Positions 44,584-63,120 of a stretch of DNA of 64,000 bases are shown here, in pieces. The notes beneath the pieces are model-generated. The model made no database searches. It was not told the DNA's origin and was given only the letters and a program-made list of their open reading frames with translations. Position numbers and translations under genes: made by a program. Every line of letters starts with the position of its first letter. Position 1 is the first letter of the stretch. The stretch comes from Vallitalea guaymasensis (GTDB taxonomy: Bacteria; Bacillota; Clostridia; Lachnospirales; Vallitaleaceae): contig NZ_CP058561.1 of assembly GCF_018141425.1 (NCBI RefSeq), forward strand, positions 3,286,001-3,350,000, in the 5' to 3' direction.

Positions 44584-44856
44584 TGTAGCCAATCGTTATG
44601 CTACTTAGAAGAAAAAGTGTTTTGTGATTATATTAAGATCACTACGAGCAAAATAGTATATGTATATGTGGAGTAGTGAGGCAGGACGCCGAACCCAGCT
44701 TTTAATCTGACAGCCCTACTGGACTGTCAGAAATAATGATTGACTCGATGTCTATTATTATTTATTGAGCTCAGGACGAGCAAGTAGCTGGCGTAACATA
44801 TACATATACTATTTTGCAAAAGCCAAGTCCGAACAAACTCTTTTTCTGACTTACTT
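44584..44856 (+). repeat. Palindromic structured element, copy 1
   Basis: A 270-bp element. Imperfect terminal inverted repeats (CTTAGAAGAAAAAGTGTTT at 44604 and AAACTCTTTTTCTGACTTA at 44835) bound an outer 20-bp stem (AAAATAGTATATGTATATGT at 44650-44669; complement at 44796-44815). Inside are hairpins CTGACAG/CTGTCAG and an A/T-rich one around GACTCGATGTC, plus a conserved GTAGTGAGGCAGGACGCC block. Copy 2 is at 62885 and a core-less copy at 54799. It fills the gap between the ATP-grasp and sulfonate-binding genes; no ORF is present. Confidence 0.9.
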
Positions 44857-44925
44857 GCACTATATATCAAACAAAAACTTATATTACTTTTAATAAATAC
44901 TTAGTATAGAAAGGATGACATACTA

Positions 44926-45864
44926 ATGAAAATGAAACCAACATTAATATTAACAATCTCAATGATTATGCTATTAATGACAGCATGTGGAAAAAAACAT
45001 GACAATACTGTCAAAATCGCCCAGCAATATGGTCTAGCTTATGCCCCTATACAAATAATGAAAGAAAAAGGTTTCCTAGAAGAAGCCCTACCTAACAATA
45101 AAATTGAATGGGTCAAACTCTCTAACACAGCAGCTATTCGTGAAGCTGTACTTGCAGATAATCTTGATGTAGGATTCATGGGAATACCACCTTTCCTTAT
45201 AGCACTTGATAACGGTATGGAGTGGAAAATGATGACAGGTCTCTCTAGTTGTCCAATTGGTCTAGTCACATATGATGACAACATAAAGACACTTAAAGAT
45301 TTTACCTCAAAAGATAAAATAGCTCTACCCCAACCAGGAAGTATACAGCATATCCTACTTGCTATGGCATGTGAAAGAGAACTTGGCAAGGCTGATGCTC
45401 TTGACAATCAATTAGTTTCCATGAAACATCCAGATGGATTCCAAGCATTGACTGCCAAACAAGATATAAAAGCACATTTTACTTCACCACCCTATTTATT
45501 CGAAGAATTAGCCAATGAAGATAACCACATGGTTATAACTGGTGAAGAAGCTATGGGAAGTGAATTTACTTTTATCGCAGGTGCTTGTACCGAAGATTTT
45601 TATACTAATAACAAAAAAGAATACTCTGCACTAATAGAAGCTATTAATAAATCTATAGAATTCATGATAAATAACGAAGATGAAACTTTGGACATATTGT
45701 CTAATTTATATGAGATGGATAAAGAGAAGTTGAAAGGTTATCTTAATTACGAAGGGATGAAATACGCTACAGACATTCAAGGTGTAGACAAATTCGTAGA
45801 TTTTATGGTAAGAAACAACTACCTTAATAAATCCTACAAAAGTGAAGAGGTCATTTGGGAATGA
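44926..45864 (+). CDS. ABC transporter substrate-binding lipoprotein (sulfonate/taurine/nitrate type)
   Basis: A 312-aa lipoprotein (lipobox LMTA-Cys) of the SsuA/TauA/NMT1 family: VKIAQQYGLAYAPIQIMKEKGF, REAVLADNLDVGFMGIPP and FTFIAGACTEDFY. Its stop overlaps the permease start (ATGA). No ATPase gene accompanies the pair. The sulfur-related surroundings favour a sulfonate, but nitrate, thiamine-precursor or riboflavin-like ligands of this superfamily remain possible. Confidence 0.85.
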   Translation: MKMKPTLILTISMIMLLMTACGKKHDNTVKIAQQYGLAYAPIQIMKEKGFLEEALPNNKIEWVKLSNTAAIREAVLADNLDVGFMGIPPFLIALDNGMEWKMMTGLSSCPIGLVTYDDNIKTLKDFTSKDKIALPQPGSIQHILLAMACERELGKADALDNQLVSMKHPDGFQALTAKQDIKAHFTSPPYLFEELANEDNHMVITGEEAMGSEFTFIAGACTEDFYTNNKKEYSALIEAINKSIEFMINNEDETLDILSNLYEMDKEKLKGYLNYEGMKYATDIQGVDKFVDFMVRNNYLNKSYKSEEVIWE

Positions 45865-46622
45865 AAAAATTATATATACGTCGATTTCTATGGATAGGAT
45901 TTTTTATAATCATATGGGAAGTTACATATTACTCTAACGTATACGCTAGACAGATTTTTCCTTCCATCGAGCAAATCATCAAATCTTTAGGTATTAGCCT
46001 TACTAAAGGTGATCTGCTCATGCAGATAGGATTTTCTTTCATCATAATTTTAAAAGGGTTACTGATAGGTATTGTGCTATCTGTGTTATTAAGCTTTTTT
46101 GATTACTTCTTCAAAAATTTCAGTAGTCTATTGGATACAATAATCGGTATACTCCACCCTATTCCAGGTATAGCGTTACTTCCATTAGTTATCATTTGGT
46201 TTGGGGTTGGAGAAAAAGCCATTCTTGTAATTATAGTACACTCGGTTTTATGGCCTATGACTATCAACATGAAAACAGGTTTTAGGTCTGTGGACAATGA
46301 ATATATAGAAGTCTCTAAGAATTTTGGTATGAACATATGGCAGATTTTTTATTATGTACTGATACCTCTTAGTCTCCTTCATATAGTATCTGGATTAAAA
46401 ATTGGCTGGTCTAGAGCATGGCGAGCACTAATCAGTTCTGAAATGGTATTTGGAGCAATTGGACCTTTTGGTGGTCTAGGCTGGTTTATCTTTGAAAAAC
46501 GAGTGTATATGGACACTCCAGGGACGTATGCTGGTTTAGTTGTTATAATTATCATTGGCATGATTATGGAAGATTTCATCTTTGGAAGACTGGAAAAGAA
46601 ATGTGAAGAAATACTATTATGA
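45861..46622 (+). CDS. ABC transporter permease (SsuC/TauC-like)
   Basis: A 253-aa inner-membrane protein with about six transmembrane helices and the EAA loop, FRSVDNEYIEVSKNFGMNIWQIF ... LPLIVSG-type LHIVSGLKIGWSRAW. It overlaps the preceding binding-protein gene by 4 bp and the convergent membrane glycosyltransferase by 6 bp. The cognate ATPase is missing from the window. Confidence 0.87.
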   Translation: MKKLYIRRFLWIGFFIIIWEVTYYSNVYARQIFPSIEQIIKSLGISLTKGDLLMQIGFSFIIILKGLLIGIVLSVLLSFFDYFFKNFSSLLDTIIGILHPIPGIALLPLVIIWFGVGEKAILVIIVHSVLWPMTINMKTGFRSVDNEYIEVSKNFGMNIWQIFYYVLIPLSLLHIVSGLKIGWSRAWRALISSEMVFGAIGPFGGLGWFIFEKRVYMDTPGTYAGLVVIIIIGMIMEDFIFGRLEKKCEEILL

Positions 46623-48200
46623 TATATTATTTATCTTATAGATTTTCACTTTCCAATCATATTCCATCATGTACTTAGGTATCCTTATACCATATAGAGA
46701 ATTACTGAACTCATGAATAAGGGTACAATTTTCTTCTATATAATTATTCATTTCATCGTGATAATAATCTTTTCCATAGAGAACATTCCATCTAGGATTT
46801 CTGTTGATGTAATCCAATTCTTCTGTATAGATGATATATTCAATATTATTGGTTGCGATATAATCCCTAAAAGACATATTATTTTCTTCTAAAAATGTGA
46901 GATTTCTATAATCCAGTAATTTATCATTATCAAAATAAAATTCCATATTTAGATTACCTAGAGTTTTAGCATCTGAAGGAATGACACTCAACTCATCTAG
47001 ATATCCATCATAATTGTAGGGCGTATATAACCTTACCTCGTTTAAAGTATAATACGACGATAAAATAATTGATAATCCCATAAAACATATTATTAACTCT
47101 TTTCTATAAGCTACAATCTTACATATTAAGGCAAGAGTAAGCAAATAGAAGAATGGAAAAATAAATATAATATTTGTTTGATTATATCTGCCAATGATGA
47201 TAAAACCAATATTTATACCTATAATACAAGTCAATAATCTAAAAATAGTTAGAGCAGAAAAAGATTCTTTCTTGTTACTATTCTTATTCCCCAAATATTT
47301 AACTAATAAATATAGAATCGATGATATAGTTATGATAGCAAAAATGATAAGATAAGCTTGTATAGGTGGCGTGTAATAAGTACCGCTTATACCAAGATAT
47401 AACTTTTTGTAATAATATGGAATTGTTAATATTTTATCATAAAAGCTAGAGCTTACCCCTAGAGTCTCACCGAAATTAGTATAATGAGTAATAAAATCAG
47501 CATCACCAATAAAACTTAGAATGACAAATATTAATGCAGTAAACCCAGTAGTCATAATTAATGTTATTAGATTACGGAATTTTTTAGTTCTATGGAATAC
47601 GTCAATTATATATAATAATCCAAAAACAACAGCTATAATAAAGCTATTTGGATGAATCCCTACAGATAAACCGATAATAAGTCCAAGTAGAATGTGTGGA
47701 TTTATTTTTTTATTACCCAGTGGCGATAAATAATGATAGAATCCAAGCATAAAGAAAAATACCATAATGCTCTCTTGTCTTGCAAAATGGGAAGCATATA
47801 TGAATTGTATGTTTACACTAAATAATATAGTCAGTAATACCGAGTACATACCATTTTTGAATATTTTGGTGCATATACAATAAAAAAGAATCAACGAAAA
47901 TATACTAAAAATAAGAGAAACCAATCTGACTGCAAAGATGTTATAACCAAAAACAAGTATAAAAGGCATTTGTATCAGATGAAATATTACTTTTATGCTA
48001 TGAGGGAATCTTGGATAAATATTAAAAAATGTTTCAGTACAATAGATTGATTTACTTTCCATCATGTTCCTTGTCAAACCGCTTAACCAAGGTTCATCAG
48101 AATGAACGAAGGGAAAAATTTCTAGACAATTCAAGCTAATAATAAAGTATAATAATAGATAGATAGCAATTATATAAAAATATTTTTTAGAATTTTTCAT
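46617..48200 (-). CDS. GT39-like integral membrane glycosyltransferase
   Basis: A 527-aa protein with 10 or more transmembrane helices. The first extracytoplasmic loop carries an acidic motif followed by aromatic residues (FVHSDEPWLSGLTRNMMES), as in the PMT/ArnT superfamily that moves sugars from polyprenyl phosphate donors. A soluble C-terminal region (about 425-527) follows. GAGGAT supports the ATG at 48200; the frame is open to a TTG at 48224. It may act with the DegT-GT2-ATP-grasp cassette upstream, but it is on the other strand and separated by a transporter pair. Confidence 0.78.
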   Translation of the reverse strand: MKNSKKYFYIIAIYLLLYFIISLNCLEIFPFVHSDEPWLSGLTRNMMESKSIYCTETFFNIYPRFPHSIKVIFHLIQMPFILVFGYNIFAVRLVSLIFSIFSLILFYCICTKIFKNGMYSVLLTILFSVNIQFIYASHFARQESIMVFFFMLGFYHYLSPLGNKKINPHILLGLIIGLSVGIHPNSFIIAVVFGLLYIIDVFHRTKKFRNLITLIMTTGFTALIFVILSFIGDADFITHYTNFGETLGVSSSFYDKILTIPYYYKKLYLGISGTYYTPPIQAYLIIFAIITISSILYLLVKYLGNKNSNKKESFSALTIFRLLTCIIGINIGFIIIGRYNQTNIIFIFPFFYLLTLALICKIVAYRKELIICFMGLSIILSSYYTLNEVRLYTPYNYDGYLDELSVIPSDAKTLGNLNMEFYFDNDKLLDYRNLTFLEENNMSFRDYIATNNIEYIIYTEELDYINRNPRWNVLYGKDYYHDEMNNYIEENCTLIHEFSNSLYGIRIPKYMMEYDWKVKIYKINNIS

Positions 48201-48369
48201 ATCAATTATCCTCGTAATTAACAAAATTTAGTAGTTTGCCTTATTATTCACATAGTTACTATATTATATCACAATAATTAACTAAAATACACGTTATATA
48301 AGGCTAATTAAATAATTGCTATAGATCCAGTAATTATTTAGTTCTATTGAGCTTATAAAATCAAGGAAA

Positions 48370-48432
48370 ATATATTGAACTTATTGAATAGGTGTATAGA
48401 TGTTTAAGTTCAATATATATCACACTATTCAA
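48370..48432 (+). other. Interleaved inverted repeats (possible pseudoknot) upstream of rhodanese genes
   Basis: ATATATTGAACTTA (48370-48383) is exactly complementary to TAAGTTCAATATAT (48405-48418). Between and after them TTGAATAG (48384-48391) is complementary to CTATTCAA (48425-48432), giving an A-B-A'-B' order that can fold as an H-type pseudoknot or as mutually exclusive hairpins. The rest of the gap to 48617 shows no ORF. Confidence 0.5.
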
Positions 48433-48617
48433 CTATCAAATACTATATCAGCAAAACTTATAACCATCTTAAAAATTAATAGTGTATAATTGTATCTATA
48501 AGAAAAAGAGTTGAGATTAATAATTCCCCAGTTTGTATATTATTTAACAATGTTTACTAATATAATCAGAAAGTATTTCTAGCAGTTCTAGTTAGAAATA
48601 TATAGGAGGAGTTAGTC

Positions 48618-49529
48618 ATGAAGTATGGAACTAACCATAAGAGAGGTATTTTACTTCCTCTATTGATTGTGTTTGTTTTGCTTTTTACTTCCTGTAATAA
48701 TACCAGTTATAAAGGAAGTAATAATGTTGTAGAACCAACTGAAGTTAAAGAGGCAATGAATAATAGTGACGTAATTATCATTGATGCAAGATCAGAAGAA
48801 GAATATGCAAAAGGACATCTTGAAGGAGCTATTTGTCTTAATCCAAGCAGCCTTACCATATCTGAACCAATTAAAGGTATGTTAGCTCCAAAAGAGCAGG
48901 TTGAGAAGGTATTAAGTGAAAAAGGAATTTCTAATGATAGTACTTTGTATATCTACGATAATAGCGGCGGGGTATATTCAGGTCGTGTATGGTGGGTATT
49001 AAAAGTCTATGGACATGATAATGTAAAAGTTATCAATAATGGTCAAAGAGGCTTAGAAAAAGCTAAACTTCCTATGTCTTTAGAAGTACCGGAATTAGCA
49101 CCAACTGAATATGTTGCCAAAGAAGCTAACAGCGATATGATAGCTACTATGGATTATGTTAAGACTGTTGCAGAAAATAAAGATAGTAAAGAAAAAATTA
49201 TAGATGTAAGAAGCAAAGCAGAATATGAAGAAGGGGCTATTCCTAACGCTATATTATATCCCCATACAAAAAATTTGTATACAGATGGAACATTCAAGTC
49301 AGCTAGAGATACATTTTTGTTCTATAAGGATTTAGGTCTTGATAAAGATGATACAATCATTCTTTATTGTAAATCATCATTCCGTGCAACACAAACAGCA
49401 CTATTACTTGATGAAGCAGGTTTTAAAAATGTAAAAGTGTATGATGGTGCATGGTTAGAGTGGTCTGCTGGTGATATGCCAACGGAGAAAGAAGAAAAAA
49501 CAGTACCTGACTCCGGGGATGCTTCATAA
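48618..49529 (+). CDS. Lipoprotein with two rhodanese domains
   Basis: A 303-aa surface lipoprotein (lipobox LFTS-Cys). The first rhodanese domain (about 38-155: IIIDARSEEEYAKGHLEGA) has YDNSGG where the active-site loop should be and therefore no catalytic Cys; the second (about 175-290: IIDVRSKAEYEEGAIPNA) has YCKSSFRATQT with the Cys. This is the usual thiosulfate:acceptor sulfurtransferase arrangement. Exported location suggests it handles external thiosulfate or persulfide. Followed 33 bp later by a larger rhodanese lipoprotein. Confidence 0.88.
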   Translation: MKYGTNHKRGILLPLLIVFVLLFTSCNNTSYKGSNNVVEPTEVKEAMNNSDVIIIDARSEEEYAKGHLEGAICLNPSSLTISEPIKGMLAPKEQVEKVLSEKGISNDSTLYIYDNSGGVYSGRVWWVLKVYGHDNVKVINNGQRGLEKAKLPMSLEVPELAPTEYVAKEANSDMIATMDYVKTVAENKDSKEKIIDVRSKAEYEEGAIPNAILYPHTKNLYTDGTFKSARDTFLFYKDLGLDKDDTIILYCKSSFRATQTALLLDEAGFKNVKVYDGAWLEWSAGDMPTEKEEKTVPDSGDAS

Positions 49530-49562
49530 TTATCATGATTTTATTTAAATGGAGGGAACATA

Positions 49563-51368
49563 ATGAAAAAACTTAATAAGTTAGTAGCTTTACTTTTAAT
49601 GGTAGTCATGGTATTAAGTGTTGCAGGTTGTGGTTCTAAGAAAGATGATACTGCAGGATCAATGGATTTAAGTAAAGGTACAGAAAGCAATACAGATACA
49701 ACTAAAGATGATGACACAAAAAAAGATGACGATGCAGAAGCATTTAATCTAGAAGAAGGCATTAATGCTTATTATGCAAACATGCCAGATCATATTTACA
49801 AAATCAATCAAAAAGAATTTATTGATAAAGTAAAAGCTAATGACGATATGGTTGTTGTTGACATCCGTACAGAGGAAGATTATAAGAAAGGTCATGTAAA
49901 AGGAGCATATAATGCACCTTGGGGACCTGCAATCGCTGAGAATATTACAAAAATATCACAGGATAAAGAAGTCTTCATTTACTGTTATTCAGGACAGACA
50001 GCAGGTCAAGCTGTAATGACATTGAACTTAGCTGGTATTAATGCAAGAAGCGTTAACTTAGGATTCAACTTCGGTATATCCAAGGTTGAAGGCTATGAAG
50101 ATGTAATTGAAGAAACAGTTAATGAGTTTGGTTCAGAAACTTATGATGTACCAAAAGAAGTTAAAACTGCATTAACAGATTATTATAATGGTTTAGCTGA
50201 TGTAAAAGATACAAAGTTCAAAAACTATAAAGTATCTGAAGATAATCTAAAAGCCATGATTGATAACAAAGAAGATTTCTATTTATTATCAATCAGAGGT
50301 GAAAAAGATTTTAATGAAGGACATATAGCTGGAGCTAGCAATATACCTTGGGGAGCAGGAATGGAAAAACAATTTGCTACTCTTCCAAAGGATAAGCCAG
50401 TTGTTGTATATTGTTATACAGGACAGACAGCAGGACAGACAGTTGCAGGACTTCGTTTATTAGGCATAGACGCAGTTTCATTAAATGGTGGATTAGGTAT
50501 GGATGCAAATGCCCCACTTGGATGGTCTAATAAAGGATATGAAGTTGTAGCTGATGGTGTAGTTGAAGCAGGCGTTAATTCTTACTTCGCTAATATGCCA
50601 GAACACATTTATAAGATTAATCAAAAAGAATTTATAGAAAAAGTAAAAGCTGACGAAGATATGGTAATTGTTGATATCCGTACAGCAGAAGATTATAAAA
50701 AAGGTCATGTAAAAGGAGCATATAATGCACCTTGGGGACCAGCTATAGCAGAAAATATTACTAAGATATCTCAAGATAAAGACGTATATATCTACTGCTA
50801 TTCAGGACAGACAGCAGGTCAAGCTGTAATGACATTGAACTTAGCTGGGATCAATGCTAGAAGTGTTAACTTAGGATTTAACTTCGGTATTTCAAAAGTT
50901 GAAGGATACGAAGACGTTATAGAAGAAACTGTAAACGAATTCGGTTCAGAAACATATGACGTACCAGAGGAAGTAAAAGCAGCATTGACAGCTTACTATA
51001 ATGGTTTAGCAGATGTAAAAGAAACTAAATTCAAGAATTACAAAGTATCTGAGAAGAACTTAAAAGCTATGATTGATGATAAAGAAGATTTCTATCTATT
51101 ATCAATCAGAAGTGCAAAGGACTTTGAAGAAGGACATATAGCTGGAGCTAATAATATACCTTGGGGAGCAGGAATGGAAAAACAATTCGGTACTCTTCCA
51201 AAGGATAAGCCAGTAGTTGTTTACTGCTACACAGGTCAAACAGCAGGTCAAACAGTAGCTGCACTTAGATTATTAGGTTATGATGCTGTATCACTTAACG
51301 GTGGAATGGGTATGGAAATAAATGCTCCACTAGGATGGATTAATAATGAATTTGAAGTTGTAAAATAA
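49563..51368 (+). CDS. Lipoprotein with four rhodanese domains
   Basis: A 601-aa lipoprotein (lipobox SVAG-Cys, Asp/Lys/Thr-rich linker to about residue 62). Four rhodanese domains occur as a duplicated pair: residues about 70-330 and 335-600 are close copies. Each domain has an active loop beginning YCYSGQTAGQAV or YCYTGQTAGQTV, so all four catalytic Cys are present. The DNA of the two halves is also closely similar, indicating a fairly recent internal duplication of about 795 bp. Probably works with the preceding two-domain rhodanese on extracellular sulfur species. Confidence 0.9.
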   Translation: MKKLNKLVALLLMVVMVLSVAGCGSKKDDTAGSMDLSKGTESNTDTTKDDDTKKDDDAEAFNLEEGINAYYANMPDHIYKINQKEFIDKVKANDDMVVVDIRTEEDYKKGHVKGAYNAPWGPAIAENITKISQDKEVFIYCYSGQTAGQAVMTLNLAGINARSVNLGFNFGISKVEGYEDVIEETVNEFGSETYDVPKEVKTALTDYYNGLADVKDTKFKNYKVSEDNLKAMIDNKEDFYLLSIRGEKDFNEGHIAGASNIPWGAGMEKQFATLPKDKPVVVYCYTGQTAGQTVAGLRLLGIDAVSLNGGLGMDANAPLGWSNKGYEVVADGVVEAGVNSYFANMPEHIYKINQKEFIEKVKADEDMVIVDIRTAEDYKKGHVKGAYNAPWGPAIAENITKISQDKDVYIYCYSGQTAGQAVMTLNLAGINARSVNLGFNFGISKVEGYEDVIEETVNEFGSETYDVPEEVKAALTAYYNGLADVKETKFKNYKVSEKNLKAMIDDKEDFYLLSIRSAKDFEEGHIAGANNIPWGAGMEKQFGTLPKDKPVVVYCYTGQTAGQTVAALRLLGYDAVSLNGGMGMEINAPLGWINNEFEVVK

Positions 51369-51380
51369 TAGATTAGATTT

Positions 51381-51418
51381 AAAAAAACTGTCAGTGAAAA
51401 ATTGCTGGCAGTTTTTTT
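51381..51418 (+). terminator. Terminator of the rhodanese operon
   Basis: AAAAAAACTGTCAG pairs with CTGGCAGTTTTTTT (one mismatch), ending in seven Ts. Confidence 0.88.
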
Positions 51419-51577
51419 GATACACAATAATATTTTTACATACTCAGTTTCTTAATTCTATAGAAATTCATAATGAATAAAATGTATATAATAGCCCCAA
51501 TATGGATAACTTGATAATGAGATATATTTATTATTAAGGCTGAAAGGTTATTAAAAAAAATAAAGGAAGGGAAAAGT

Positions 51578-51820
51578 ATGAAAACTATTATTGGAATTAA
51601 AGTAAGCAATCGACTAGAAGAAGTTGACAGGATGCAGGATATTCTTACAGAACAAGGCAGTATTATCAATACCAGATTAGGATTACATCAAGGAAACACC
51701 TCCAAAGAAGGTATTATCCTGTTAGAGTTAACTGAAGAAACTGAAAGTAAGTGTAGTGAATTAGAGGACTCATTAAAATCAATAGAAGGTATTGAAGTTA
51801 GTAAAATGACTTTTTCATAA
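51578..51820 (+). CDS. Small ACT-like protein, TM1266-type
   Basis: An 80-aa protein. The pattern IIGIKVSNRLEEVDRMQDIL ... RLGLHQGNTSKEGIILLEL ... SIEGIEVSKMTFS matches the short ACT/ferredoxin-like family that includes TM1266, annotated in other genomes as a putative iron-only hydrogenase system regulator. No hydrogenase maturation genes are near, so the annotation should not be taken as function. AAGGAAGGG precedes the ATG. Confidence 0.65.
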   Translation: MKTIIGIKVSNRLEEVDRMQDILTEQGSIINTRLGLHQGNTSKEGIILLELTEETESKCSELEDSLKSIEGIEVSKMTFS

Positions 51821-51915
51821 AAAATAGTATTAAAGGATATAAATAATTAGACAAAAGGTGCAAAATTAATTTTTGTATCTTTTTAATTGCATTAAAATAA
51901 ATCCGAACTTTTTAC

Positions 51916-51944: not shown

Positions 51945-51952
51945 TTGAATAA

Positions 51953-54798: not shown

Positions 54799-54926
54799 TG
54801 TAAGTCAGAAAAAATATTTTGTTCTGACGTGGTTTTTGCAAAATAGTATAGGTATATGTTGCTTTTAATTCCCATGGATATAATCACAAAATATTTTTTC
54901 TTCTAAATTGGCATGACTATTGGCTA
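54799..54926 (-). repeat. Palindromic structured element, copy 3 (inverted, core deleted)
   Basis: Read on the minus strand, both ends match copies 1 and 2: TTAGAAGAAAAAA...TTTTGTGATTATAT at one side and ACATATACCTATACTATTTT followed by GCAAAAACC...TTTTTTCTGACTTA at the other. The whole hairpin core of about 130 bp is missing. This shows the element's ends can exist without the core. Confidence 0.8.
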
Positions 54927-55003: not shown

Positions 55004-55023
55004 AGAAAAAAATTGAATAATTG

Positions 55024-55230
55024 GAGTAGGTGGCAATTTTTATTGCATAATAGGGAATCAGGTGCAAAACCTGAACGGTCACGCCGCTGTAATGTGGAGT
55101 AGTTTTACATTAACCCACTGTATTAGTGATAGAAGTTACTTTTTTAAAAATAATCATAATAAGAAGTAATTTTTGATAATATGGGAAGGGGGAGAATTAC
55201 AAGGAAACTAAGTCAGAAAACCTGCCGGTC
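55024..55230 (+). promoter_or_regulatory. Cobalamin riboswitch
   Basis: Canonical parts in order: AATAGGGAATCAGGTGCAAA, ACCTGAACGGTCACGCCGCT, GTAATGTGGA, ACCCACTGTA, GGGAAGGGGG, and the B12 box AAGTCAGAAAACCTGCC (55210-55226). The core CGGTCACGCCGCTGT differs slightly from the consensus CCCGC-ACTGT. It precedes BtuFCD-like and CobN-like genes. Confidence 0.93.
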
Positions 55231-55640
55231 TCTAAAACACTTTCACTTATACGAAGTGAAAACTCTGCGAGTGACGGAGGGTGTGGAATACTTAATATAA
55301 TCTTGTGATTAGATATTTGCTGTATTAGGTAGGCAGGTTTTCCCTTATTTATGCTATAGAGACATTACATAATGTTTTATTGTGGAAAATATTTTGATAT
55401 ACATACAAACTAAGTATTTAAAGTGCTTGAGTAGGTGTGTGTAATATAGGGAATGGTAGCCAAATTATAGCAGATTGGAAATATAGATTTGTATTGATGA
55501 TTTTCATGCTTTTTAACTTGCAGAAGTTAAGGGGCATTTTTTATTGCAGTAATTTAACATGTGTATTCACACTGCAGTTAAAAATAATCCAATTATATTC
55601 TAAAACAAATAAAATTGATGTTGTATGGAGGAAAAAAAGG
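55231..55640 (+). other. Long riboswitch leader / expression platform
   Basis: 410 nt between aptamer and the first gene. GGCAGGTTTT (55332-55341) is exactly complementary to AAAACCTGCC of the B12 box, so it can compete with the ligand-bound aptamer. Hairpins include CACTTTCACTTATACGAAGTG (shown in part) around 55239-55259 and TTAACTT/AAGTTAA at 55513-55530. An open frame from 55437 has no RBS and is not called as a gene. Confidence 0.6.
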
Positions 55641-56729
55641 ATGAATAAAAAACTAGCAGTCATATTTACTTTAATAGGATGTATGATCATTTTAAGTTTT
55701 ACAGGGTGTAGTAATGATAAGAAAACAGAAAAGATGCCAAAAGAAATGGATAAAAAAATGTCAGAAGGTATGGATAAGAAGATGCCAAAAGGTATGGGTG
55801 AAGGTAAAATGCCATCTATGGGTGGTGCTGTAGTTACTGTATCAGAAGGCGAAGGCTATCCAGTTACTATTACTGATATGTACGGTAATGAAGTAACTCT
55901 AGAGAAGAAACCAGAAAAAATAGCAGCAATATCAGGTACTTTCCTAGGCTTATTATATGATTTAGGAGGTAAATCAATCTGTACATCTGAGACTGGTGGC
56001 GGTGCTCCTGTAGATCCAAAGGATATAGAGGGATTACCAGTAATAGGTAAAGTTTATAAGCCAGATATTGAAAAAATTGTTGCATTACAACCAGAATTGG
56101 TAATAGCCCAATTTGGTTTACAGAATGGAGTTATTCCAGTTCTAGAACAAAGTAAAATAAAAACTTTGGCTTTACATATGAGAACATATGAAGATGTTAT
56201 TGACAATATTAGAGCAATGGGACGTATTATCGATGAACCAAATAAGGCGGAAGAAGTTATCGCAGACATGGAAAAGGAAAAGAAAGCTTTAGTTGATAAG
56301 GTACCAGAGGAATCAAAAAAAGTGGTTATACTATATGCTACATCAAAAGATGTTTCAGTAAAATTACCTAAGAGTATTGCTGGAAATGTAGCAGATATAT
56401 TGAAACTTGAAAATATAGCAGCAGGTTGTGCGCCAGAAGGAATGGGTGGAGAAACTACACCTTTCAGTATGGAATATATAATAGAAAAAGACCCAGATGT
56501 AATTTTAGTAACAAGTATGTTAAGTTCTGATGAAGATGCAAAAAAAGTTATTAGTGAAAAATTAGGGAAAGATCAAGTATGGAAAGAATTAAGAGCTGTA
56601 AAAGAAGGAAATATAGTTTATCTACCACAAAAATACTTCTTATACAATGCAGGTTGTGACTTTGTTGATGCCATTGAGTATATGGCAAAAGGTGTATATC
56701 CTGAAGTATTTGGTGGTTTAGATGAATAA
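55641..56729 (+). CDS. Cobalamin/metal-chelate ABC transporter substrate-binding lipoprotein
   Basis: A 362-aa BtuF/FhuD-type (TroA-fold, class III) binding protein with lipobox FTG-C23. Between the anchor and the binding domain is a tract with Met at 32, 36, 40, 44, 48, 52, 57 and 60 separated by Lys/Glu/Pro/Gly. The binding domain begins VTITDMYGNEVTLEKKPEKI and contains KPDIEKIVALQPELVIAQ and EKDPDVILVTSML. GGAGG at 55627-55631 fits the ATG at 55641. The riboswitch points to a corrinoid or cobalt compound; the Met tract could bind a soft metal (inference). Confidence 0.85.
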   Translation: MNKKLAVIFTLIGCMIILSFTGCSNDKKTEKMPKEMDKKMSEGMDKKMPKGMGEGKMPSMGGAVVTVSEGEGYPVTITDMYGNEVTLEKKPEKIAAISGTFLGLLYDLGGKSICTSETGGGAPVDPKDIEGLPVIGKVYKPDIEKIVALQPELVIAQFGLQNGVIPVLEQSKIKTLALHMRTYEDVIDNIRAMGRIIDEPNKAEEVIADMEKEKKALVDKVPEESKKVVILYATSKDVSVKLPKSIAGNVADILKLENIAAGCAPEGMGGETTPFSMEYIIEKDPDVILVTSMLSSDEDAKKVISEKLGKDQVWKELRAVKEGNIVYLPQKYFLYNAGCDFVDAIEYMAKGVYPEVFGGLDE

Positions 56730-57711
56730 AACCATTTCAAAAGACAGTAATAAAATAGCATTTATTATAGCATTTGGAATTTTATTGATAATAGCTTTTC
56801 TATTAAGCAACGCCAAGGGAAGCATGAATGTGTCTATGAAAAGAATATTAGAAGTAATTATTAACAATGATGGTTCAGCTGAAAGGTTGGTAATATGGAA
56901 CATCAGATTACCAAGAACTATAGTAGCAGGATTAGTTGGAGTTAATCTAGCTTTGTCTGGGTGTATATTGCAAGGGGTTATGCGAAACCCCTTGGCTGAC
57001 CCAGGTATTATTGGTATATCATCAGGGGCTGGACTTGCAGGGATAATCATATTGATATTATTTCCAAAGTATCAGATGCTGGTTCCACCATTTGCGTTTG
57101 TTGGTGCAATGGGAGCAGCGATAATGATATATGTATTATCTTGGAAAGGTGGTATACAACCAATAAGAGTCATACTTGCAGGTGTTGCAGTATCAACCTT
57201 ATTAGGAGCAGGTATATCTGCATTGATGGTATTCTTCAGCGACAGAGTACATGGTGCATTAATGTTTATGAACGGTGGATTATCTGCTAGAAGCTGGCCT
57301 GAGTTGTGGACAATTTTACCCTATACGATTATAGGATTGATTATACTTTCTTTTATGTCGGAAAAGCTTAATATACTTATTTTAGGTGATGATATTGCAA
57401 GAGGTGTAGGGCTCAATGTTGAATTAGTTCGTTTCGGGTTGACGGCAGTCGCGGCTATGTTGGCTGCCAGTGCAGTATCAGTAGTTGGTTTATTAGGATT
57501 TGTGGGACTTATTATTCCCCATAGTGTCAGACTTATGGTTGGTAATGATTATAAGTACTTGATTCCTGGTTCATCATTACTTGGAGCAGCAGTTGTTATG
57601 TTGAGTGATACTTTTGCTCGTACTGTATTAAGTCCTGTAGAAATACCAGTTGGAATTGTTATGGCAATCTTAGGAGTACCGTTTTTTCTATATTTGTTAA
57701 GAAAAGATTAA
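56722..57711 (+). CDS. FecCD/BtuC-type ABC transporter permease
   Basis: A 329-aa membrane protein with about ten helices: IRLPRTIVAGLVGVNLALSGCILQGVMRNPLADPGIIGISSGAG (in part) is diagnostic of the BtuC/FecCD family, as are GFVGLIIPHSVRLMVG and a final IPVGIVMAILGVPFFLYLL. It overlaps the binding-protein gene by 8 bp. Confidence 0.93.
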   Translation: MNKTISKDSNKIAFIIAFGILLIIAFLLSNAKGSMNVSMKRILEVIINNDGSAERLVIWNIRLPRTIVAGLVGVNLALSGCILQGVMRNPLADPGIIGISSGAGLAGIIILILFPKYQMLVPPFAFVGAMGAAIMIYVLSWKGGIQPIRVILAGVAVSTLLGAGISALMVFFSDRVHGALMFMNGGLSARSWPELWTILPYTIIGLIILSFMSEKLNILILGDDIARGVGLNVELVRFGLTAVAAMLAASAVSVVGLLGFVGLIIPHSVRLMVGNDYKYLIPGSSLLGAAVVMLSDTFARTVLSPVEIPVGIVMAILGVPFFLYLLRKD

Positions 57712-57737
57712 AATACATATAGATGAGAGTTGGTTAT

Positions 57738-58523
57738 ATGGAAGAGATACTAAGAGCTGAGAATATATCAGTTAAATATAAAGAGAACCAAGTTATAAAA
57801 GATCTGAATCTAAATATAGGAAAGGGCAAAATCTATTCAATAATAGGTCCTAATGGTTCAGGTAAAACAACCTTATTGAGAACATTATCAAGGAATATCA
57901 AGCCTAATAAGGGCAAAATTTTTTTAGATGGAAAAAATATATCTGGTATCAAAAGTAAGCAGATAGCTAGGAAAATGGCTGTTTTATCTCAGATACATGG
58001 TAGTAATACAGATGTGACAGTAAGAAATCTAGTAGTATATGGGAGATATGCTTACAAAGAGTGGTGGAAGGGAGATAGTGAACAAGATAACGATATAGTT
58101 GACTGGGCTCTGGAAACTACTAACATGAAGGATTTTGCTAATAAGAAGATGTGTAATCTGTCTGGTGGTGAGAAGCAGAGAGCGTGGATTGCAATGGCTA
58201 TTGCTCAGAAACCAGAGATATTATTATTGGATGAACCTACAACTTTTTTGGATATAAGTCATCAGTTGGAGGTATTGGAGTTAGTTGAGAGTCTTAATAA
58301 AGAAAATGGTATTACTATACTTATGGTATTGCATGATATTAATCTTGCGGCTAAATATTCGGATGAATTGATTGTCATTAAAGATGGAGATGTTTATTTG
58401 AAAGGGGAACCTTGGGATATAGTAAGTGAGGAGAATCTTAAGGATGTTTTTAATATTAATGGGGATATAACAGAAGATAAAGAGAGTGGGAAGCCGGTGT
58501 TTTTTCCTAGGTTAGTAAGGTAG
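57738..58523 (+). CDS. BtuD/FecE-type ABC transporter ATPase
   Basis: A 261-aa ATPase: Walker A GPNGSGKTT, signature LSGGEKQR, Walker B ILLLDEPTTFLDI, and VLHDINLAAKYSDELIVIKD typical of the cobalamin/siderophore class. The ATG at 57738 gives a family-typical N-terminus; an upstream ATG at 57723 is possible. Completes the BtuFCD-like transporter. Confidence 0.92.
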   Translation: MEEILRAENISVKYKENQVIKDLNLNIGKGKIYSIIGPNGSGKTTLLRTLSRNIKPNKGKIFLDGKNISGIKSKQIARKMAVLSQIHGSNTDVTVRNLVVYGRYAYKEWWKGDSEQDNDIVDWALETTNMKDFANKKMCNLSGGEKQRAWIAMAIAQKPEILLLDEPTTFLDISHQLEVLELVESLNKENGITILMVLHDINLAAKYSDELIVIKDGDVYLKGEPWDIVSEENLKDVFNINGDITEDKESGKPVFFPRLVR

Positions 58524-58549
58524 CTATGTGGCTATAGTATTGTTGGAGG

Positions 58550-58634
58550 GACAGTCAGGGTAACGTGTTATAATCACTTGCCTTACCCTGAGAAGCGGTC
58601 GGTCTGCGTGATTATAACACGTTACCCTTCTGTC
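58550..58634 (+). repeat. Short palindromic element, copy 1
   Basis: Arms GGGTAACGTGTTATAATCAC (58558-58577) and the exact complement at 58608-58627 enclose a 30-nt core (TTGCCTTACCCTGAG / AAGCGGTCGGTCTGC). A short outer GACAG/CTGTC pair extends the stem. Same-orientation copy at 62493. It lies between the ATPase gene and the chelatase gene. Confidence 0.85.
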
Positions 58635-58730
58635 TTCAGATAGGTAGTATGAGAATTAAGGGCTTTGTTGTGCAGAAATAGGCGAGTGCTTATATGTAGT
58701 TAATTAAATTTATGGAGAGAGGGAATTGGT

Positions 58731-61700
58731 GTGAAGGTAACTGTGATTTCGGTTTCTACATCGGTGATAACAGGATTGATTAAGGTACAAGAGGATATTA
58801 ATAGAAGGTTTAATGATGTGTTGGAGTTACGATTGTTTTATGCATCTAGGGCATTAGAGGATAGTAAGCTTGAGGTTATGGAGAGTGATATTGTTGATTC
58901 GGATGTCACTTTTGTAGATTTGATGGGAAGTCCTAAGAAGGTTGTAGGGGCTGTAATGAGAGGATTAGGGAAGTGTAAGGGGAATATAATTCCTATAGGT
59001 GGAGCAGGTAGAAATTTCCTGCGACTTGGAGAATTGACTTCTAGTGATATGGGGATGAGTAAAAAGAGTAGTAAAAAGTCTAGGAAACCTATGGATATGA
59101 GTAAGATGCAAAAGATGGCTGATATGGCGGAAAAAATGGGTAAATTGATTCCTGTTGGGAAGCCAAGGGATATGAGAAATTTTGTTCAGATAGGTAAATA
59201 TTTTCAGAATGCTACTATTTTACAATTAACTAATATGATGTATCTGTTGTTAAGAGATTATGGGAAAGTGAAAGGGATTCCCAAACCTCAAGAATCTGAG
59301 AAGTTACCTGACATTGGTTTATGTGATCCTGAGACGAAAATGTATTTTGATGATTATAAGGAATATGCTGATATCCATGGGTTTAATAGTAATAAGCCTA
59401 CAGTGGCTTTATTATTTTATGGACACACTTATCCAAATGATACTTCAACTTGTGTTGCAAAAATAGCGGAGCAAATTAGACCATTCGCTAATGTATTGCC
59501 AATAGCTTTTTCCAAGACTAAGACAGATAATCAAGACTTATTGAAAGAATGGTTATTATATGGGATAGGTAGAAAAGTTAATTTTATCATTAATTTTATG
59601 TCATTTAGATTAGGTGCTGGACCTATGGGTGGAAATGCTGATTATGCAGTTAGTATTTTGGAAGATGTCAATGTACCAATATTCCATCCGTTCTTTATGA
59701 CTAAGAGAAGAGAAAGTGAATGGTTTAATAGTGTAGAAGGAATAAATTCATCAGAATTCTTATTATCAGTAATGCTTCCGGAATTAGATGGAGCAATAGA
59801 GACTTATCCTATTGGAGCAATGGCAGCACCAGAATATAATAGTGAGTTTGATATTGAGGTAAGGGAACTTAGTTTGATAGATGATAGAGTCTTGAAACTC
59901 GTTTCCAGAGTTAAAAATTGGTTGAAACTGCAAATTAAGAAAAATTCCGATAAAAAGGTAGCTATTATATGCTACAATTATCCACCAGGTGAGAATAACC
60001 TTTTTGGAGGAGCTTTTCTTGATACCTTCAATTCAGTGGAGAATATATTGAAAGAATTGAATGATAATGGTTATAATGTGAAGCCATTGAGTAGTGATGA
60101 TTTAATGAGTAGTTTTACAGCGGGAAGAATAGTTAATTCTGGTAGATGGTCTGACGAAGGATCAGAAGAAAATTTTATTAAATATAGTACTAAAGAGTAT
60201 AATAAGGATTTAGAAGATAAGTGGTATAAAAAAGAAATATTGGAGCAATGGGGGCAAGCGCCTGGTGACGTAATGAGTGATGGAGATAATTTCTTGATAC
60301 CAGGAATAATAAGTGAAAATGTTTTTGTTGGTCTACAGCCTACAAGAGGTATACATGAGAATCCAGAAAAAGTGTATCATGATAAAACATTATTGCCTCA
60401 TCATCAATATATAGCATATTATCAGTGGCTAAAAGAGGAGTTTAAAGCTGACGTGATTATTCATGTAGGAACTCATGGGACATTGGAATTCTTAAAAGGT
60501 AAAGAATGCGGTATGTCCAGTAGATGTCTACCAGATATGTTAGTAAGTGATCTTCCTCATCTCTATATCTATTATTGCGGTAATCCAGCAGAAGGAATGA
60601 TTGCAAAAAGACGTTCTCATGCAGCCTTGATAGGTTATCAACCACCAACATTTATCGAAGGAGAATTATATGGTGAATATGCAAAATTGGCAGCGATGAT
60701 TGATGAATACCATGAAGCCCTAAGAGTATCACCAGTAAGAAGTGATGATGTATATACTAACATATTAAAGAAGGCAGTGGAAAATAATTTACCTGAGGAT
60801 TTAGACCAGATTGAAAGTGAATTATATAGGATGAACCGTTCACTTATTCCAAAAGGTCTGCATGTATTTGGTAAATCTTTTGATAATGAAGAAGTTTACA
60901 GGTATCTTGAATTTGTCCTAAGATATGATAGAGGTAATATAAAATCTCTTAGGAGAATCTTAGCAGTTAATAGTGGTTATGATTATGATGAAATACTTGA
61001 AAATAATGATATAAACGTATTAAAACGAATAGATAGGGAAGTAAAAGACTTAATTGATACATATTGGAAAGAAAATAGTAAAATTAGCGATAGTCTTAAC
61101 CTCAAAAATGACCTAAGAATAGAAATAGATAATACAATGAAGTACGCAGAAGAACTAATTAGTAAGTGTAATGAGAATAATGAGAGCAACGGACTTCTAA
61201 AACTAATGAATGGAGAATATCTTAAGGCTAAATTAGCAGGAGATACTATCAGAAATCCAGAGGTAATGCCAACAGGTTATAATCTATATCAATTTGACCC
61301 TAGGTTTGTTCCAAGTGAAACAGCTTACGAGAGAGGCAAGAAAATAGCTGAGAATACAATTAGCCAGTATCTAAGGGAACATGGAGAATATCCAAAGAGT
61401 ATAGCGGTGGTTTTATGGGGACTTGAAACTTCTAGGACTCAGGGAGAAACAGTTGGACAGATAATGGCTTATCTAGGAATAAGACTTGGAAAGTCAAGAA
61501 GTATATGGGAACCCAAATATGAAATAATACCTGAGGAAGAATTAAAGAGACCTAGAATTGATGTAGTAATAAATATCTGTGGATTTTTTAGAGATATGTT
61601 CTCGAATATTATCAATGATCTAAATGAATTATTTGAATCAATATATGAACTAAATGAAACTGATGAATTTAATTACTTCAAATCTAATAGTAAACGACTG

Positions 61701-62474
61701 TACAGGAAGCTATTAGAGGATGGTTATGAAAAAGAGGAAGCTTTAGAGTTATGTAAATCTAGGATATTTGGACCAGCAGAAGGTGAATACGGAACAGGTA
61801 TCACTAAGCTATTTGAAACCAAGAATTGGGAAAATGAATCTCAGATAGGTGAAACTTTTGTTAAGAGTCTAAGGCATGTATATAGCAAGAATCATAGAGG
61901 AAAAGAAGCAGGGGAATTGCTTAATAATAATCTTAGTTCTGTTGATGTTGTATCACAGATAAGAAGTAATCATGAGTATGAGGTTACAGACCTTGACCAT
62001 TATTATGAATTTTTTGGTGGACTTGCTAAATCAGTTGAAATGGCTAAGGGATCAAAAGCGGAGATATATATTACTGATACGACTGGTGAACGACTTGAAA
62101 CAGAAAGTGTTGAGAAATCCATCAATAGAGGAATTAGGACCAGAGTGTTAAATCCAAAATGGATAGATGGTATGTTGGAACATAAATATCATGGAGTTCA
62201 AAAAATTGCTGATAGATTTGAGAATATCATGGGATTAGCTGCTACTACTAATAAGGTAGAAGAGTGGATTTATGATGATTTGCATAGTAAATATATTGAT
62301 GATGATGAGATGAGGGAAAGATTGAAAGATAATAATAGATGGGCTTATTTTTCTATTGTGGAAAAGATGATGGAGTATGAGAAGAGAGGTTATTGGAAGG
62401 CTACGGATGAGCAGAAGGAGAAGCTGTTGGAGGTTTATTTGGAATTGGAGGGGGATATAGAGGAGGATATTTAG
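58731..62474 (+). CDS. CobN/BchH-type chelatase large subunit
   Basis: A 1247-aa subunit of an ATP-dependent metal chelatase that would insert cobalt (or Mg/Ni) into a tetrapyrrole. The N-terminal DUF3479-like part contains VTFVDLMGSPKKVVGAVM; the CobN core contains PGENNLFGGAFLDTFNS, HVGTHGTLEFLKGKECG and AVVLWGLETSRTQGETVGQ. Residues about 105-140 are a Lys/Met-rich insertion (SKKSSKKSRKPMDMSKMQKM...) not usual in the family. GTG start with GGAGAGAGG upstream. The ChlI/BchI gene downstream and BtuFCD upstream place it in a cobalamin-controlled metal/tetrapyrrole pathway; the true substrate is unproven. Confidence 0.88.
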   Translation: MKVTVISVSTSVITGLIKVQEDINRRFNDVLELRLFYASRALEDSKLEVMESDIVDSDVTFVDLMGSPKKVVGAVMRGLGKCKGNIIPIGGAGRNFLRLGELTSSDMGMSKKSSKKSRKPMDMSKMQKMADMAEKMGKLIPVGKPRDMRNFVQIGKYFQNATILQLTNMMYLLLRDYGKVKGIPKPQESEKLPDIGLCDPETKMYFDDYKEYADIHGFNSNKPTVALLFYGHTYPNDTSTCVAKIAEQIRPFANVLPIAFSKTKTDNQDLLKEWLLYGIGRKVNFIINFMSFRLGAGPMGGNADYAVSILEDVNVPIFHPFFMTKRRESEWFNSVEGINSSEFLLSVMLPELDGAIETYPIGAMAAPEYNSEFDIEVRELSLIDDRVLKLVSRVKNWLKLQIKKNSDKKVAIICYNYPPGENNLFGGAFLDTFNSVENILKELNDNGYNVKPLSSDDLMSSFTAGRIVNSGRWSDEGSEENFIKYSTKEYNKDLEDKWYKKEILEQWGQAPGDVMSDGDNFLIPGIISENVFVGLQPTRGIHENPEKVYHDKTLLPHHQYIAYYQWLKEEFKADVIIHVGTHGTLEFLKGKECGMSSRCLPDMLVSDLPHLYIYYCGNPAEGMIAKRRSHAALIGYQPPTFIEGELYGEYAKLAAMIDEYHEALRVSPVRSDDVYTNILKKAVENNLPEDLDQIESELYRMNRSLIPKGLHVFGKSFDNEEVYRYLEFVLRYDRGNIKSLRRILAVNSGYDYDEILENNDINVLKRIDREVKDLIDTYWKENSKISDSLNLKNDLRIEIDNTMKYAEELISKCNENNESNGLLKLMNGEYLKAKLAGDTIRNPEVMPTGYNLYQFDPRFVPSETAYERGKKIAENTISQYLREHGEYPKSIAVVLWGLETSRTQGETVGQIMAYLGIRLGKSRSIWEPKYEIIPEEELKRPRIDVVINICGFFRDMFSNIINDLNELFESIYELNETDEFNYFKSNSKRLYRKLLEDGYEKEEALELCKSRIFGPAEGEYGTGITKLFETKNWENESQIGETFVKSLRHVYSKNHRGKEAGELLNNNLSSVDVVSQIRSNHEYEVTDLDHYYEFFGGLAKSVEMAKGSKAEIYITDTTGERLETESVEKSINRGIRTRVLNPKWIDGMLEHKYHGVQKIADRFENIMGLAATTNKVEEWIYDDLHSKYIDDDEMRERLKDNNRWAYFSIVEKMMEYEKRGYWKATDEQKEKLLEVYLELEGDIEEDI

Positions 62475-62492
62475 ATATTACTGCCTAAAAAA

Positions 62493-62589
62493 GGCAACAG
62501 TCAGGTTGTAAAGTGTTATAATCACTTGCCTTACTCTGAGAAGCGATCGGTCTGCGTGATTATAACACTTTACAACCTTCGGTTGTGCC
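62493..62589 (+). repeat. Short palindromic element, copy 2
   Basis: Arms GTTGTAAAGTGTTATAATCA (62505-62524, continuing C) pair with 62556-62576 around a core differing from copy 1 at only two positions. One stem pair changed from C-G to A-T relative to copy 1, so pairing is kept. Outer GGCAAC/GTTGTGCC arms plus a T-run (GTTTT) may let it act as the cobN terminator. Confidence 0.85.
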
Positions 62590-62884
62590 GTTTTATGGAT
62601 AGAGGGGGATCTGAGGAGATGGATAGTTAGTTGTTAGGTATGTACATTGTACATTGTTTTCTCGGTTTGATATGGCTTTATGGTATTTTTAATATAATGC
62701 TATTTAAATCAGTGTAAATAAAATAGATTTTTAAAAATTGTCATTACATATTTGTAGTAGCCTATAGTTAGGCTAGTAATATGTATGTTTATAGTTACTA
62801 TTACATTTTAAAATTTTAGAGAGTAATTTTGATAAGATACTAATCTTCCACAATTAGATATGAAATAGCCTGAAAGCTTTGTAC

Positions 62885-63120
62885 GTAAGAAGAAAAAGTG
62901 TTTGTGCCTATATTGAAATAGTATAGGTATATGTGAAGTAGTGAGGCAGGACGCCGAACCCAGCTTTTAATCTGACAGCCCTACTGGACTGTTAGGAATA
63001 ATAATGGACTCGATGTCCATTATTATTCGTTGAGCTCAGGACGAGCAAGTAGCTGGCGAAACATATACCTATACTATTTTGCAAAAGCCACGTAAGAGCA
63101 AAAGATTTTTTCTGACTTAT
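62885..63120 (+). repeat. Palindromic structured element, copy 2
   Basis: Same orientation as copy 1. Outer stem AAATAGTATAGGTATATGT (62916-62934) pairs with 63061-63079; relative to copy 1 a T-A pair is now G-C on both arms. The first 55 nt of the core are identical to copy 1 and the A/T hairpin is perfect here (13 bp). It lies between the cobN-like and chlI-like genes in an otherwise gene-free stretch from 62475 to 63266. Confidence 0.9.

What the first reader, a model, noticed from the sequence alone, without database searches (positions are those of the whole stretch)
44584..63120. Unclassified palindromic element with covarying multi-hairpin core, three copies
Copies at 44584-44856 and 62885-63120 (same orientation) share a nearly identical ~120-nt core beginning GTAGTGAGGCAGGACGCC, bounded by a ~19-bp outer stem. 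Between the copies the outer stem changes T-A to G-C on both arms, and the A/T hairpin changes a U-U mismatch to G-C, so pairing is under selection. A third copy (54799-54926, inverted) keeps both ends and lacks the core. Imperfect terminal inverted repeats (AGAAGAAAAAG / CTTTTTCT) suggest a non-autonomous mobile element that carries a structured RNA. I recognise no named RNA family.
Basis: seen in the sequence. Interest (0 to 1): 0.8.

Follow-up and report, generated by a model that had tools for sequence, protein, structure and literature searches.

The report
Dispersed CsrA-type double-hairpin repeats
The three look-alike sequences belong to a large family of short fold-back repeats scattered between the genes of Vallitalea bacteria, and each intact copy carries two small hairpins of the kind that the regulator protein CsrA is known to grip, so they may act as a genome-wide sponge for that protein.

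Summary
The two full copies belong to a family with at least 73 loci in this genome; 6 of 6 same-genus (Vallitalea) genomes searched have matches. Across 89 loci from 7 genomes, 32 of 35 pairs show both-side changes and 96.5% of cells pair. A long stem encloses two hairpins with loops A(N)GGA(C/U). The window copies get no Rfam hit. Relatives match TwoAYGGAY (RF01731) weakly, below threshold, and a model built only from new sequences finds distant loci that pass TwoAYGGAY's threshold. TwoAYGGAY was predicted in 2014 to bind CsrA. In 392 genomes of the order, 33 of 33 TwoAYGGAY-positive genomes and 8 of 8 with the new type encode CsrA, against 225 of 392 overall. Orthologous cores differ 1.6%, flanks 9.1%. 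Best reading: dispersed repeats carrying a twin CsrA-binding RNA fold; binding, transcription and mobility are inferred, and orientation to genes and lack of a promoter speak against it. New variant of a known kind.

The parts
44586..44859 (+). copy 1, long form: whole element from TAGCC to TTGCA (ends are fuzzy)
44607..44627 (+). copy 1 left outer arm AGAAGAAAAAGTGTTTTGTGA, pairs with right outer arm
44648..44668 (+). copy 1 long stem P1, left arm (21 nt)
44680..44690 (+). copy 1 hairpin HP1 GGC-AGGAC-GCC, first CsrA-type loop
44695..44699 (+). copy 1 stem P2, left arm CCAGC
44707..44730 (+). copy 1 optional module, hairpin a (CTGACAG..CTGTCAG)
44731..44763 (+). copy 1 optional module, A/T hairpin b
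44769..44781 (+). copy 1 hairpin HP2 GCTC-AGGAC-GAGC, second CsrA-type loop
44787..44791 (+). copy 1 stem P2, right arm GCTGG
44797..44817 (+). copy 1 long stem P1, right arm (21 nt)
44833..44849 (+). copy 1 right outer arm
62888..63127 (+). copy 2, long form: whole element (core 62913-63082; first three core bases unpaired)
62945..62955 (+). copy 2 HP1, AGGAC loop
63034..63046 (+). copy 2 HP2, AGGAC loop
54800..54926 (-). copy 3: deletion derivative; the G005 orthologue (L051) has a different deletion that keeps HP1 and module hairpin a

Best explanation
The element is a dispersed fold-back repeat that carries, on one strand, a structured RNA with two CsrA-binding hairpins held side by side at the end of a long stem. 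SHOWN: many copies; a covarying fold; two hairpins whose loops are A(N)GGA(C/U) closed by a C-G pair; the GGA strand is the folded strand (G-U outnumbers A-C); kinship with TwoAYGGAY; co-occurrence with CsrA without exception in the genomes compared; low divergence of individual cores. INFERRED: where a copy is transcribed, a CsrA dimer binds the two loops (23 nt apart in the short form), and the pool of copies titrates CsrA (alongside FliW, whose gene sits beside csrA here) or is bound together with its host transcript. INFERRED: copies spread by an unidentified route, are homogenised by recombination between copies (4 of 6 orthologous pairs of the window's subfamily differ in carrying the two-hairpin module), and are lost by internal hairpin deletion.
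For: Covariation: 32 of 35 pairs with both-side changes, covariation score 0.429 vs 0.111 shuffled and at most 0.066 slid. Loops: GGA in 85 of 89 (HP1) and 88 of 89 (HP2) loci of A5, and in 60 of 60 each of the window's subfamily; closing pair C-G in 87 and 88 of 88 distinct rows. Strand: G-U vs A-C cells 27:10 (A5 without the 5 outermost pairs; 59:13 with them), 7:0 (A1), 16:1 (A2). Kinship: RF01731 is a match at the element in 11 of 20 divergent loci, 26.6-37.6 bits, E 0.023-7.4, so weak one by one, and reaches 39.8 bits in Vallitalea; gathering is 43. Model R2, built from Vallitalea and G035 only, finds 12 loci outside G000 in the class; 10 were re-scanned and 5 pass RF01731's gathering score. 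CsrA: 33 of 33 TwoAYGGAY-positive genomes and 8 of 8 genomes with the new type encode CsrA vs 225 of 392 (for the 33: P 4e-9 by genome; 19 of 19 genera vs 110 of 174, P 9e-5). Host csrA lies between fliW and a flagellin gene and matches solved CsrA/RsmE chains. Low divergence: orthologous cores differ at 15 of 915 sites, flanks at 289 of 3160 (P 5e-18). Gardner et al. 2014 predicted TwoAYGGAY to be CsrA-binding RNA in Clostridia (PMC4333381, passages read).
Against: No expression data. The two window copies have no sense-strand promoter-like or terminator-like site inside the element beyond chance (1 promoter-like site found in each region, shuffles 3.0 and 2.6; 0 terminators), and I saw no conserved promoter in the flanks by eye. 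Orientation to neighbouring genes is inconsistent: for the 60 copies of the window's subfamily in G000 and G005, 30 >E> vs 15 <E<; for the divergent copies 9 vs 4 in G000, but 4 vs 22 in G002, 1 vs 8 in G001 and 1 vs 7 in G035, so many copies would be read on the wrong strand by their host operon. The fold could serve as single-stranded DNA; G-T pairs would be tolerated there too. CsrA co-occurrence may reflect shared ancestry or motility: 29 of the 33 positives are in one family. Low core divergence may be copy-to-copy conversion instead of selection. R2 hits only 4 of 20 TwoAYGGAY loci at E below 1e-4.
Confidence: 0.5

Rival explanations
1. A purely DNA-level non-autonomous transposable element (MITE-like). 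The hairpins are recognised as single-stranded DNA by a transposase or recombinase supplied in trans, and the conserved loops are its binding sites; no RNA function.
For: Many dispersed copies, most outside reading frames (51 of 60 free of any ORF of 70 aa or more; 82 of 83 free of any ORF of 90 aa or more); subfamily-specific long stems that suggest separate amplification bursts; terminal inverted repeats; orientation to genes inconsistent between genomes; no promoter; diverse neighbours.
Against: No target-site duplication signal, no clean empty site, no transposase among the 25 neighbour families shown, no match on plasmid or phage records and none in viral contigs for one exact pattern of the 6-nt-loop type. 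It does not predict CsrA co-occurrence nor CsrA-like loops.
Confidence: 0.28
2. A twin-hairpin RNA for a different RNA-binding protein, or a mRNA-end structure (stabiliser, terminator), convergent with CsrA sites.
For: Long stem, intergenic location, sometimes close to a stop codon; coupling of two unpaired positions of the internal loop (G with T 28, A with A 18, A with T 9, G with A 3, G with G 2 of 60; P 7e-6 for the first four classes) hints at tertiary structure beyond CsrA sites.
Against: Two conserved A(N)GGA(Y) loops would be superfluous for a terminator or stabiliser; CsrA co-occurrence 33 of 33; mixed orientation and no terminator-like site in the window copies.
Confidence: 0.17
3. 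Ordinary decayed repeats: the fold is a relic of one burst, and covariation comes from palindrome correction during replication.
For: Deletion derivatives exist (window copy 3, L051, L093, L130); perfect palindromes can be corrected arm to arm (recalled).
Against: Covariation also in the 3-bp HP1, 5-bp P2 and 6-bp HP2, the same fold in other genera and families, and orthologous cores 5.6 times less diverged than flanks.
Confidence: 0.05

Closest known systems
TwoAYGGAY RNA (Rfam RF01731)
   Same: Long enclosing stem with two hairpins whose loops are AYGGAY; several copies per genome (2 or more in 29 of 33 positive genomes; 15 of 33 had all 7 candidates that were scored); order of Clostridia; CsrA-encoding hosts.
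   Different: In the new type HP2 sits on an extra 5-bp stem P2, an internal loop GRAGYAGYGAG / CGNAA is conserved, the window's subfamily has mostly 5-nt AGGAC loops and an optional two-hairpin module, and there are at least 73 loci in G000. Window copies are not detected by the Rfam model.
CsrB/CsrC/RsmX/Y/Z CsrA-sequestering sRNAs (RF00018 and others)
   Same: GGA in hairpin loops, generally in pairs, fit for a CsrA dimer (PMC4333381 and PMC4383904, passages read).
   Different: Those host numerous sites in one highly expressed sRNA and were in 2014 known only from Gammaproteobacteria; here two sites per copy in many dispersed copies, no promoter seen.
Bacterial MITEs and fold-back repeats (recalled class: REP/BIME, Correia, BOX, bcr elements)
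   Same: Short, non-coding, palindromic, mostly intergenic, many copies.
   Different: No target duplication signal and no transposase found; sequence outside the twin loops changes freely between families of bacteria while the loops stay.
Bacillaceae-1 RNA (RF01690)
   Same: Its reverse complement was also predicted to hold paired CsrA motifs (PMC4333381, passage).
   Different: Bacillales and Lactobacillales; no match to our loci.

Membership tests
TwoAYGGAY (RF01731) | Match to the Rfam model at or above its gathering score (43 bits) | tested here: not met
   Window copies: no match even at E up to 5. Vallitalea relatives scanned: up to 39.8 bits. G000 and G002 each have one match at E 5.9e-6 and 6.2e-4 whose place and score the cut list does not show.
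TwoAYGGAY (RF01731) | Two hairpins with AYGGAY terminal loops | tested here: met
   Family-wide A(N)GGAY in nearly all of 89 loci; the window copies themselves have the shorter AGGAC.
TwoAYGGAY (RF01731) | Long outer stem enclosing both hairpins | tested here: met
   21-pair P1, 94.9% of cells paired, 21 of 21 pairs with both-side changes.
TwoAYGGAY (RF01731) | Reciprocal detection by a model of the new sequences | tested here: inconclusive
   R2 finds 4 of 20 RF01731 loci at E below 1e-4 (L205 at 1.7e-9) and 4 more at E 0.13-0.93, one of which (L204) lies off the RF01731 match; it also finds distant loci that pass RF01731's cut-off (5 of 10 re-scanned).
TwoAYGGAY (RF01731) | Tandem G-A pairs in a stem (noted in PMC4333381) | not tested
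   -
CsrA-binding RNA | Paired hairpins with GGA in the loop | tested here: met
CsrA-binding RNA | Host encodes CsrA | tested here: met
   6 of 6 same-genus genomes; 33 of 33 TwoAYGGAY-positive and 8 of 8 new-type genomes of the order. Not tested for the class-level genomes outside the order.
CsrA-binding RNA | Transcribed and bound by CsrA | not testable with these tools
   No sense promoter inside the two window copies.
MITE | Short, non-coding, multi-copy, terminal inverted repeats | tested here: met
MITE | Target-site duplication | tested here: not met
   Shared 4- to 7-mers in 44 usable copies not above shuffles (30, 12, 3, 0 vs means 32.5, 15.3, 6.2, 1.9); boundaries are fuzzy, so a very short duplication could be missed.
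MITE | Clean empty site in a relative | tested here: inconclusive
   Only the window's copies and 8 orthologous pairs were looked at: copy 1 in G005 is an internal deletion, copy 2 lies in a 623-base difference.
MITE | Autonomous partner with transposase between the same ends | tested here: inconclusive
   Own-genome searches for the two ends with up to 3 mismatches: 23 of 24 left-end and 32 of 35 right-end hits belong to core-bearing copies; the rest are small deletion derivatives (L093, L130) and one right half (L121) whose far side was not followed beyond 260 bases.
omegaRNA / IStron / group I or II intron / HEARO | Match to the Rfam models | tested here: not met
   No such match at gathering in the window or at E up to 5-10 in the element loci scanned.

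The most novel reading that the evidence does not exclude
A family of selfish or domesticated fold-back repeats in Clostridia has built its body around the binding site of the global regulator CsrA. Its dozens of copies form a genome-wide, evolvable CsrA buffer kept nearly identical by recombination between copies. This would be the multi-copy, repeat-borne counterpart of CsrB/RsmZ in Gram-positive bacteria.
Probability: 0.33. Interest if true: 0.82.

Novelty: new variant of a known kind. Interest (0 to 1): 0.62.

Why it matters
In 2014 CsrA-sequestering sRNAs had been identified only in Gammaproteobacteria (PMC4333381, passage); in Gram-positives a 2022 review still calls research on CsrA as an sRNA partner lacking, apart from SR1 in B. 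subtilis (PMC9029176, passages). Here the 2014 prediction gets an independent test (co-occurrence with CsrA in 33 of 33 genomes) and gains a genus where the fold exists in at least 73 dispersed loci of one genome. It would tie a repeat family to a global regulator, which can be tested in a genus that has cultured members (recalled).

Tried and rejected
Rfam intron, ribozyme, omegaRNA or HEARO identity: no match. Cis-regulation of a gene class: neighbours are diverse, 177 Pfam families among 103 proteins, the commonest in 4, and orientation is not consistent. Nested transposon (core inserted into older outer repeats): 23 of 24 left-end and 32 of 35 right-end hits carry the core, so no large core-less population at 3 mismatches. 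Insertion biased by replication: 46 of 71 G000 copies are co-directional with the leading strand (P 0.017), which gene orientation may explain (origin placed near 2.4 Mb by GC skew of fetched loci). Phage or plasmid carriage: none at the sensitivity used. Own promoter: none on the sense strand in the two window copies. REP/RAYT-type elements were considered from memory and not tested.

Rows dropped before counts: L051 and L054 (no right end) from the 60-copy set of the window's subfamily; 1 of 60 lost anchors and 15 more lost boundaries in the duplication test (44 used); 2 of 105 neighbour proteins (those of L088) were not given to the alignment. A5 was made from chosen sources: L152, L166, L286 and the long-form loci L028, L045, L061, L064 and L075 were left out, L153:1389 fell to the E-value cut that also removed reverse-strand echoes, and only 6 of the 60 copies of the window's subfamily were put in. 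Copy counts are lower bounds (3-mismatch limit; 150 of 5389 candidates scored and the list cut). The flanks include coding sequence and some misalignment (one pair, L046/L072, has 89 of 393). The named-genome scan and the viral scan used patterns for 6-nt loops, which cannot find the window's 5-nt-loop type.
Full report
WHAT IS THERE. The full copies fold far better than shuffles (z -7.91 and -8.09; 0 of 200); copy 3 less so (z -2.45; 3 of 200). Rfam gives no relevant match for the two full copies, even at E up to 5.

HOW MANY. The 19-base core has 52 places in the window's own 5.63-Mb genome (G000) and 9 in the sister genome G005, with 0 for the reversed pattern. A 53rd copy with a longer loop was found by its left end. 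A covariance model of the short form (R1) adds 18 divergent copies in G000 (list cut, 150 of 5389 candidates scored) and two more seen in fetched loci (L174:1676-1780; L061:564-672): at least 73 loci. 6 of 6 same-genus genomes have matches (G000 118 including reverse-strand echoes, G001 14, G002 32, G003 1, G004 2, G005 23). In 392 genomes of the order 7 have matches: five of the genus, G009 (same family) and G035 (another family) (G004 was missed by the stricter filter). A pattern scan of the named genome collection for the 6-nt-loop type found 24 stretches, all in two Vallitalea assemblies; three contig lengths of G005 equal those of Vallitalea sp. McD1.25.

ANATOMY. From outside in: a conserved A/T-rich left part (TAGCC...AGAAGAAAAAGTGTTTTGTGA), the 21-bp stem P1, an internal loop GRAGYAGYGAG / CGNAA, hairpin HP1, stem P2 (5 bp) and, inside P2, hairpin HP2. 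The window's copies are the long form, which adds a two-hairpin module between P2 and HP2 (28 of 60 aligned copies; 32 are short). Loops are A(N)GGA(C/U): GGA in 85 of 89 HP1 and 88 of 89 HP2 loops of A5; the exceptions are ACAGAC, ATAGAC, ATGAC and ACGAC in HP1 and ATGAC in HP2. In L054, a truncated copy outside that count, both loops read AGAAC.

COVARIATION. Short form of the window's subfamily, 21 distinct rows: 8 of 35 pairs with both-side changes, 99.9% cells paired. Long form, 28 rows: 14 of 53 pairs, 99.0%. Subfamilies together, 88 distinct rows from 7 genomes: 32 of 35 pairs, 96.5%, score 0.429 against 0.111 +/- 0.005 shuffled and at most 0.066 when slid. In each case 0 of 500 shuffles reach any measure. 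A5 is fitted to the model's structure and its rows are related, so the numbers lean upward; the margin is large. G-U cells exceed A-C cells (27:10, 7:0, 16:1), so the GGA strand is the one that folds; this does not tell RNA from single-stranded DNA.

KINSHIP. In a permissive Rfam scan of 20 divergent loci, RF01731 TwoAYGGAY is found at the element in 11 loci with 26.6-37.6 bits, E 0.023-7.4 (gathering 43): weak singly, but the same family at the same place each time; 9 of 20 had none. Elsewhere a Vallitalea copy reaches 39.8 bits. A model of the new sequences (R2) finds, in 391 genomes of the class, 8 genomes; of the 12 listed loci outside G000, 10 were re-scanned with Rfam, 9 match RF01731 at E up to 5 and 5 pass its gathering score. 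R2 also hits TwoAYGGAY loci, best L205 at E 1.7e-9, but only 4 of 20 below 1e-4. I therefore call it a relative of TwoAYGGAY, not a member by Rfam's own criterion. TwoAYGGAY itself is multi-copy: 33 of 392 genomes match, 29 of these more than once, 15 with all 7 scored candidates positive. It was listed in 2010 as probably RNA and probably not cis-regulatory (PMC2864571, passage) and predicted in 2014 to bind CsrA (PMC4333381, passages). I found no paper on its dispersal or on CsrA co-occurrence in searches of the held library, which lacks most subscription journals.

CsrA. CsrA (PF02599) is in 6 of 6 same-genus genomes and 225 of 392 of the order. 33 of 33 TwoAYGGAY-positive genomes and 8 of 8 genomes with the new type are CsrA-positive (for the 33, hypergeometric P 4e-9 by genome, 9e-5 by genus). 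29 of the 33 lie in one family, and genera are not independent, so the P values are guides. The CsrA status of the class-level genomes outside the order was not tested. The host csrA lies between fliW and a flagellin gene (Pfam matches; order), and its product matches solved CsrA/RsmE chains; that the 2jpp entry is an RNA complex is recalled.

EVOLUTION. Eight orthologous pairs G005/G000: cores differ at 15 of 915 sites (1.6%), outer arms at 44 of 932 (4.7%), flanks at 289 of 3160 (9.1%) (flanks include coding sequence and some misalignment). 4 of the 6 pairs of the window's subfamily differ in long/short form, in cases while sharing locus-specific stem variants such as AAAAGAG/CTCTTTT in L052/L060, which points to exchange between copies or repeated gain and loss of the module. 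Copies are lost by internal deletion: copy 1 in G005, copy 3 and its orthologue by different deletions, L093 and L130.

CONTEXT. 51 of 60 copies of the window's subfamily overlap no ORF of 70 aa or more, and 82 of 83 divergent copies none of 90 aa or more. Orientation to neighbours differs between genomes, and the window copies show no sense promoter; these are the main weaknesses of an RNA reading. Neighbouring genes are diverse.

VERDICT. A real, highly structured, dispersed repeat family, a new variant of TwoAYGGAY RNA, most probably a twin CsrA-binding fold (0.5), with a DNA-level mobile element as the main rival (0.28).

Noticed in passing
window 58549-58635 and 62495-62586: A second dispersed fold-back repeat: two copies share a core TTGCCTTACYCTGAGAAGCGRTCGGTCTGC inside a long stem whose arms differ compensatorily (ACGTGTTATAATCAC vs AAAGTGTTATAATCAC with matching 3' arms); these stretches match several other places in G005. 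No Rfam match at gathering.
   Followed up: partly
window 48294-48420: Another dispersed repeat of about 127 bases with inner inverted repeat ATATATTGAACTTA..TAAGTTCAATATAT, present at many places in G005; the G005 orthologous site lacks about 135 bases here.
   Followed up: no
window 44671 and 44794 (internal loop after P1): Two unpaired positions are coupled across copies: G with T 28, A with A 18, A with T 9, G with A 3, G with G 2 of 60; a non-canonical or tertiary contact is possible.
   Followed up: partly
L281:1400-1845, L153:1389-1609, L265:1295-1547; also L166, L170 and L174 in G000: Clusters of two or three copies within a few hundred bases, in the same or opposite orientation.
   Followed up: no
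window 55011-55244 and 29666-29777: Cobalamin and FMN riboswitches; the third copy lies just upstream of the cobalamin riboswitch, ahead of a periplasmic-binding-protein gene.
   Followed up: no
L054 (G005:C43): In this truncated copy both CsrA-type loops carry the same change (AGGAC to AGAAC), a coupled loss or a conversion event.
   Followed up: no
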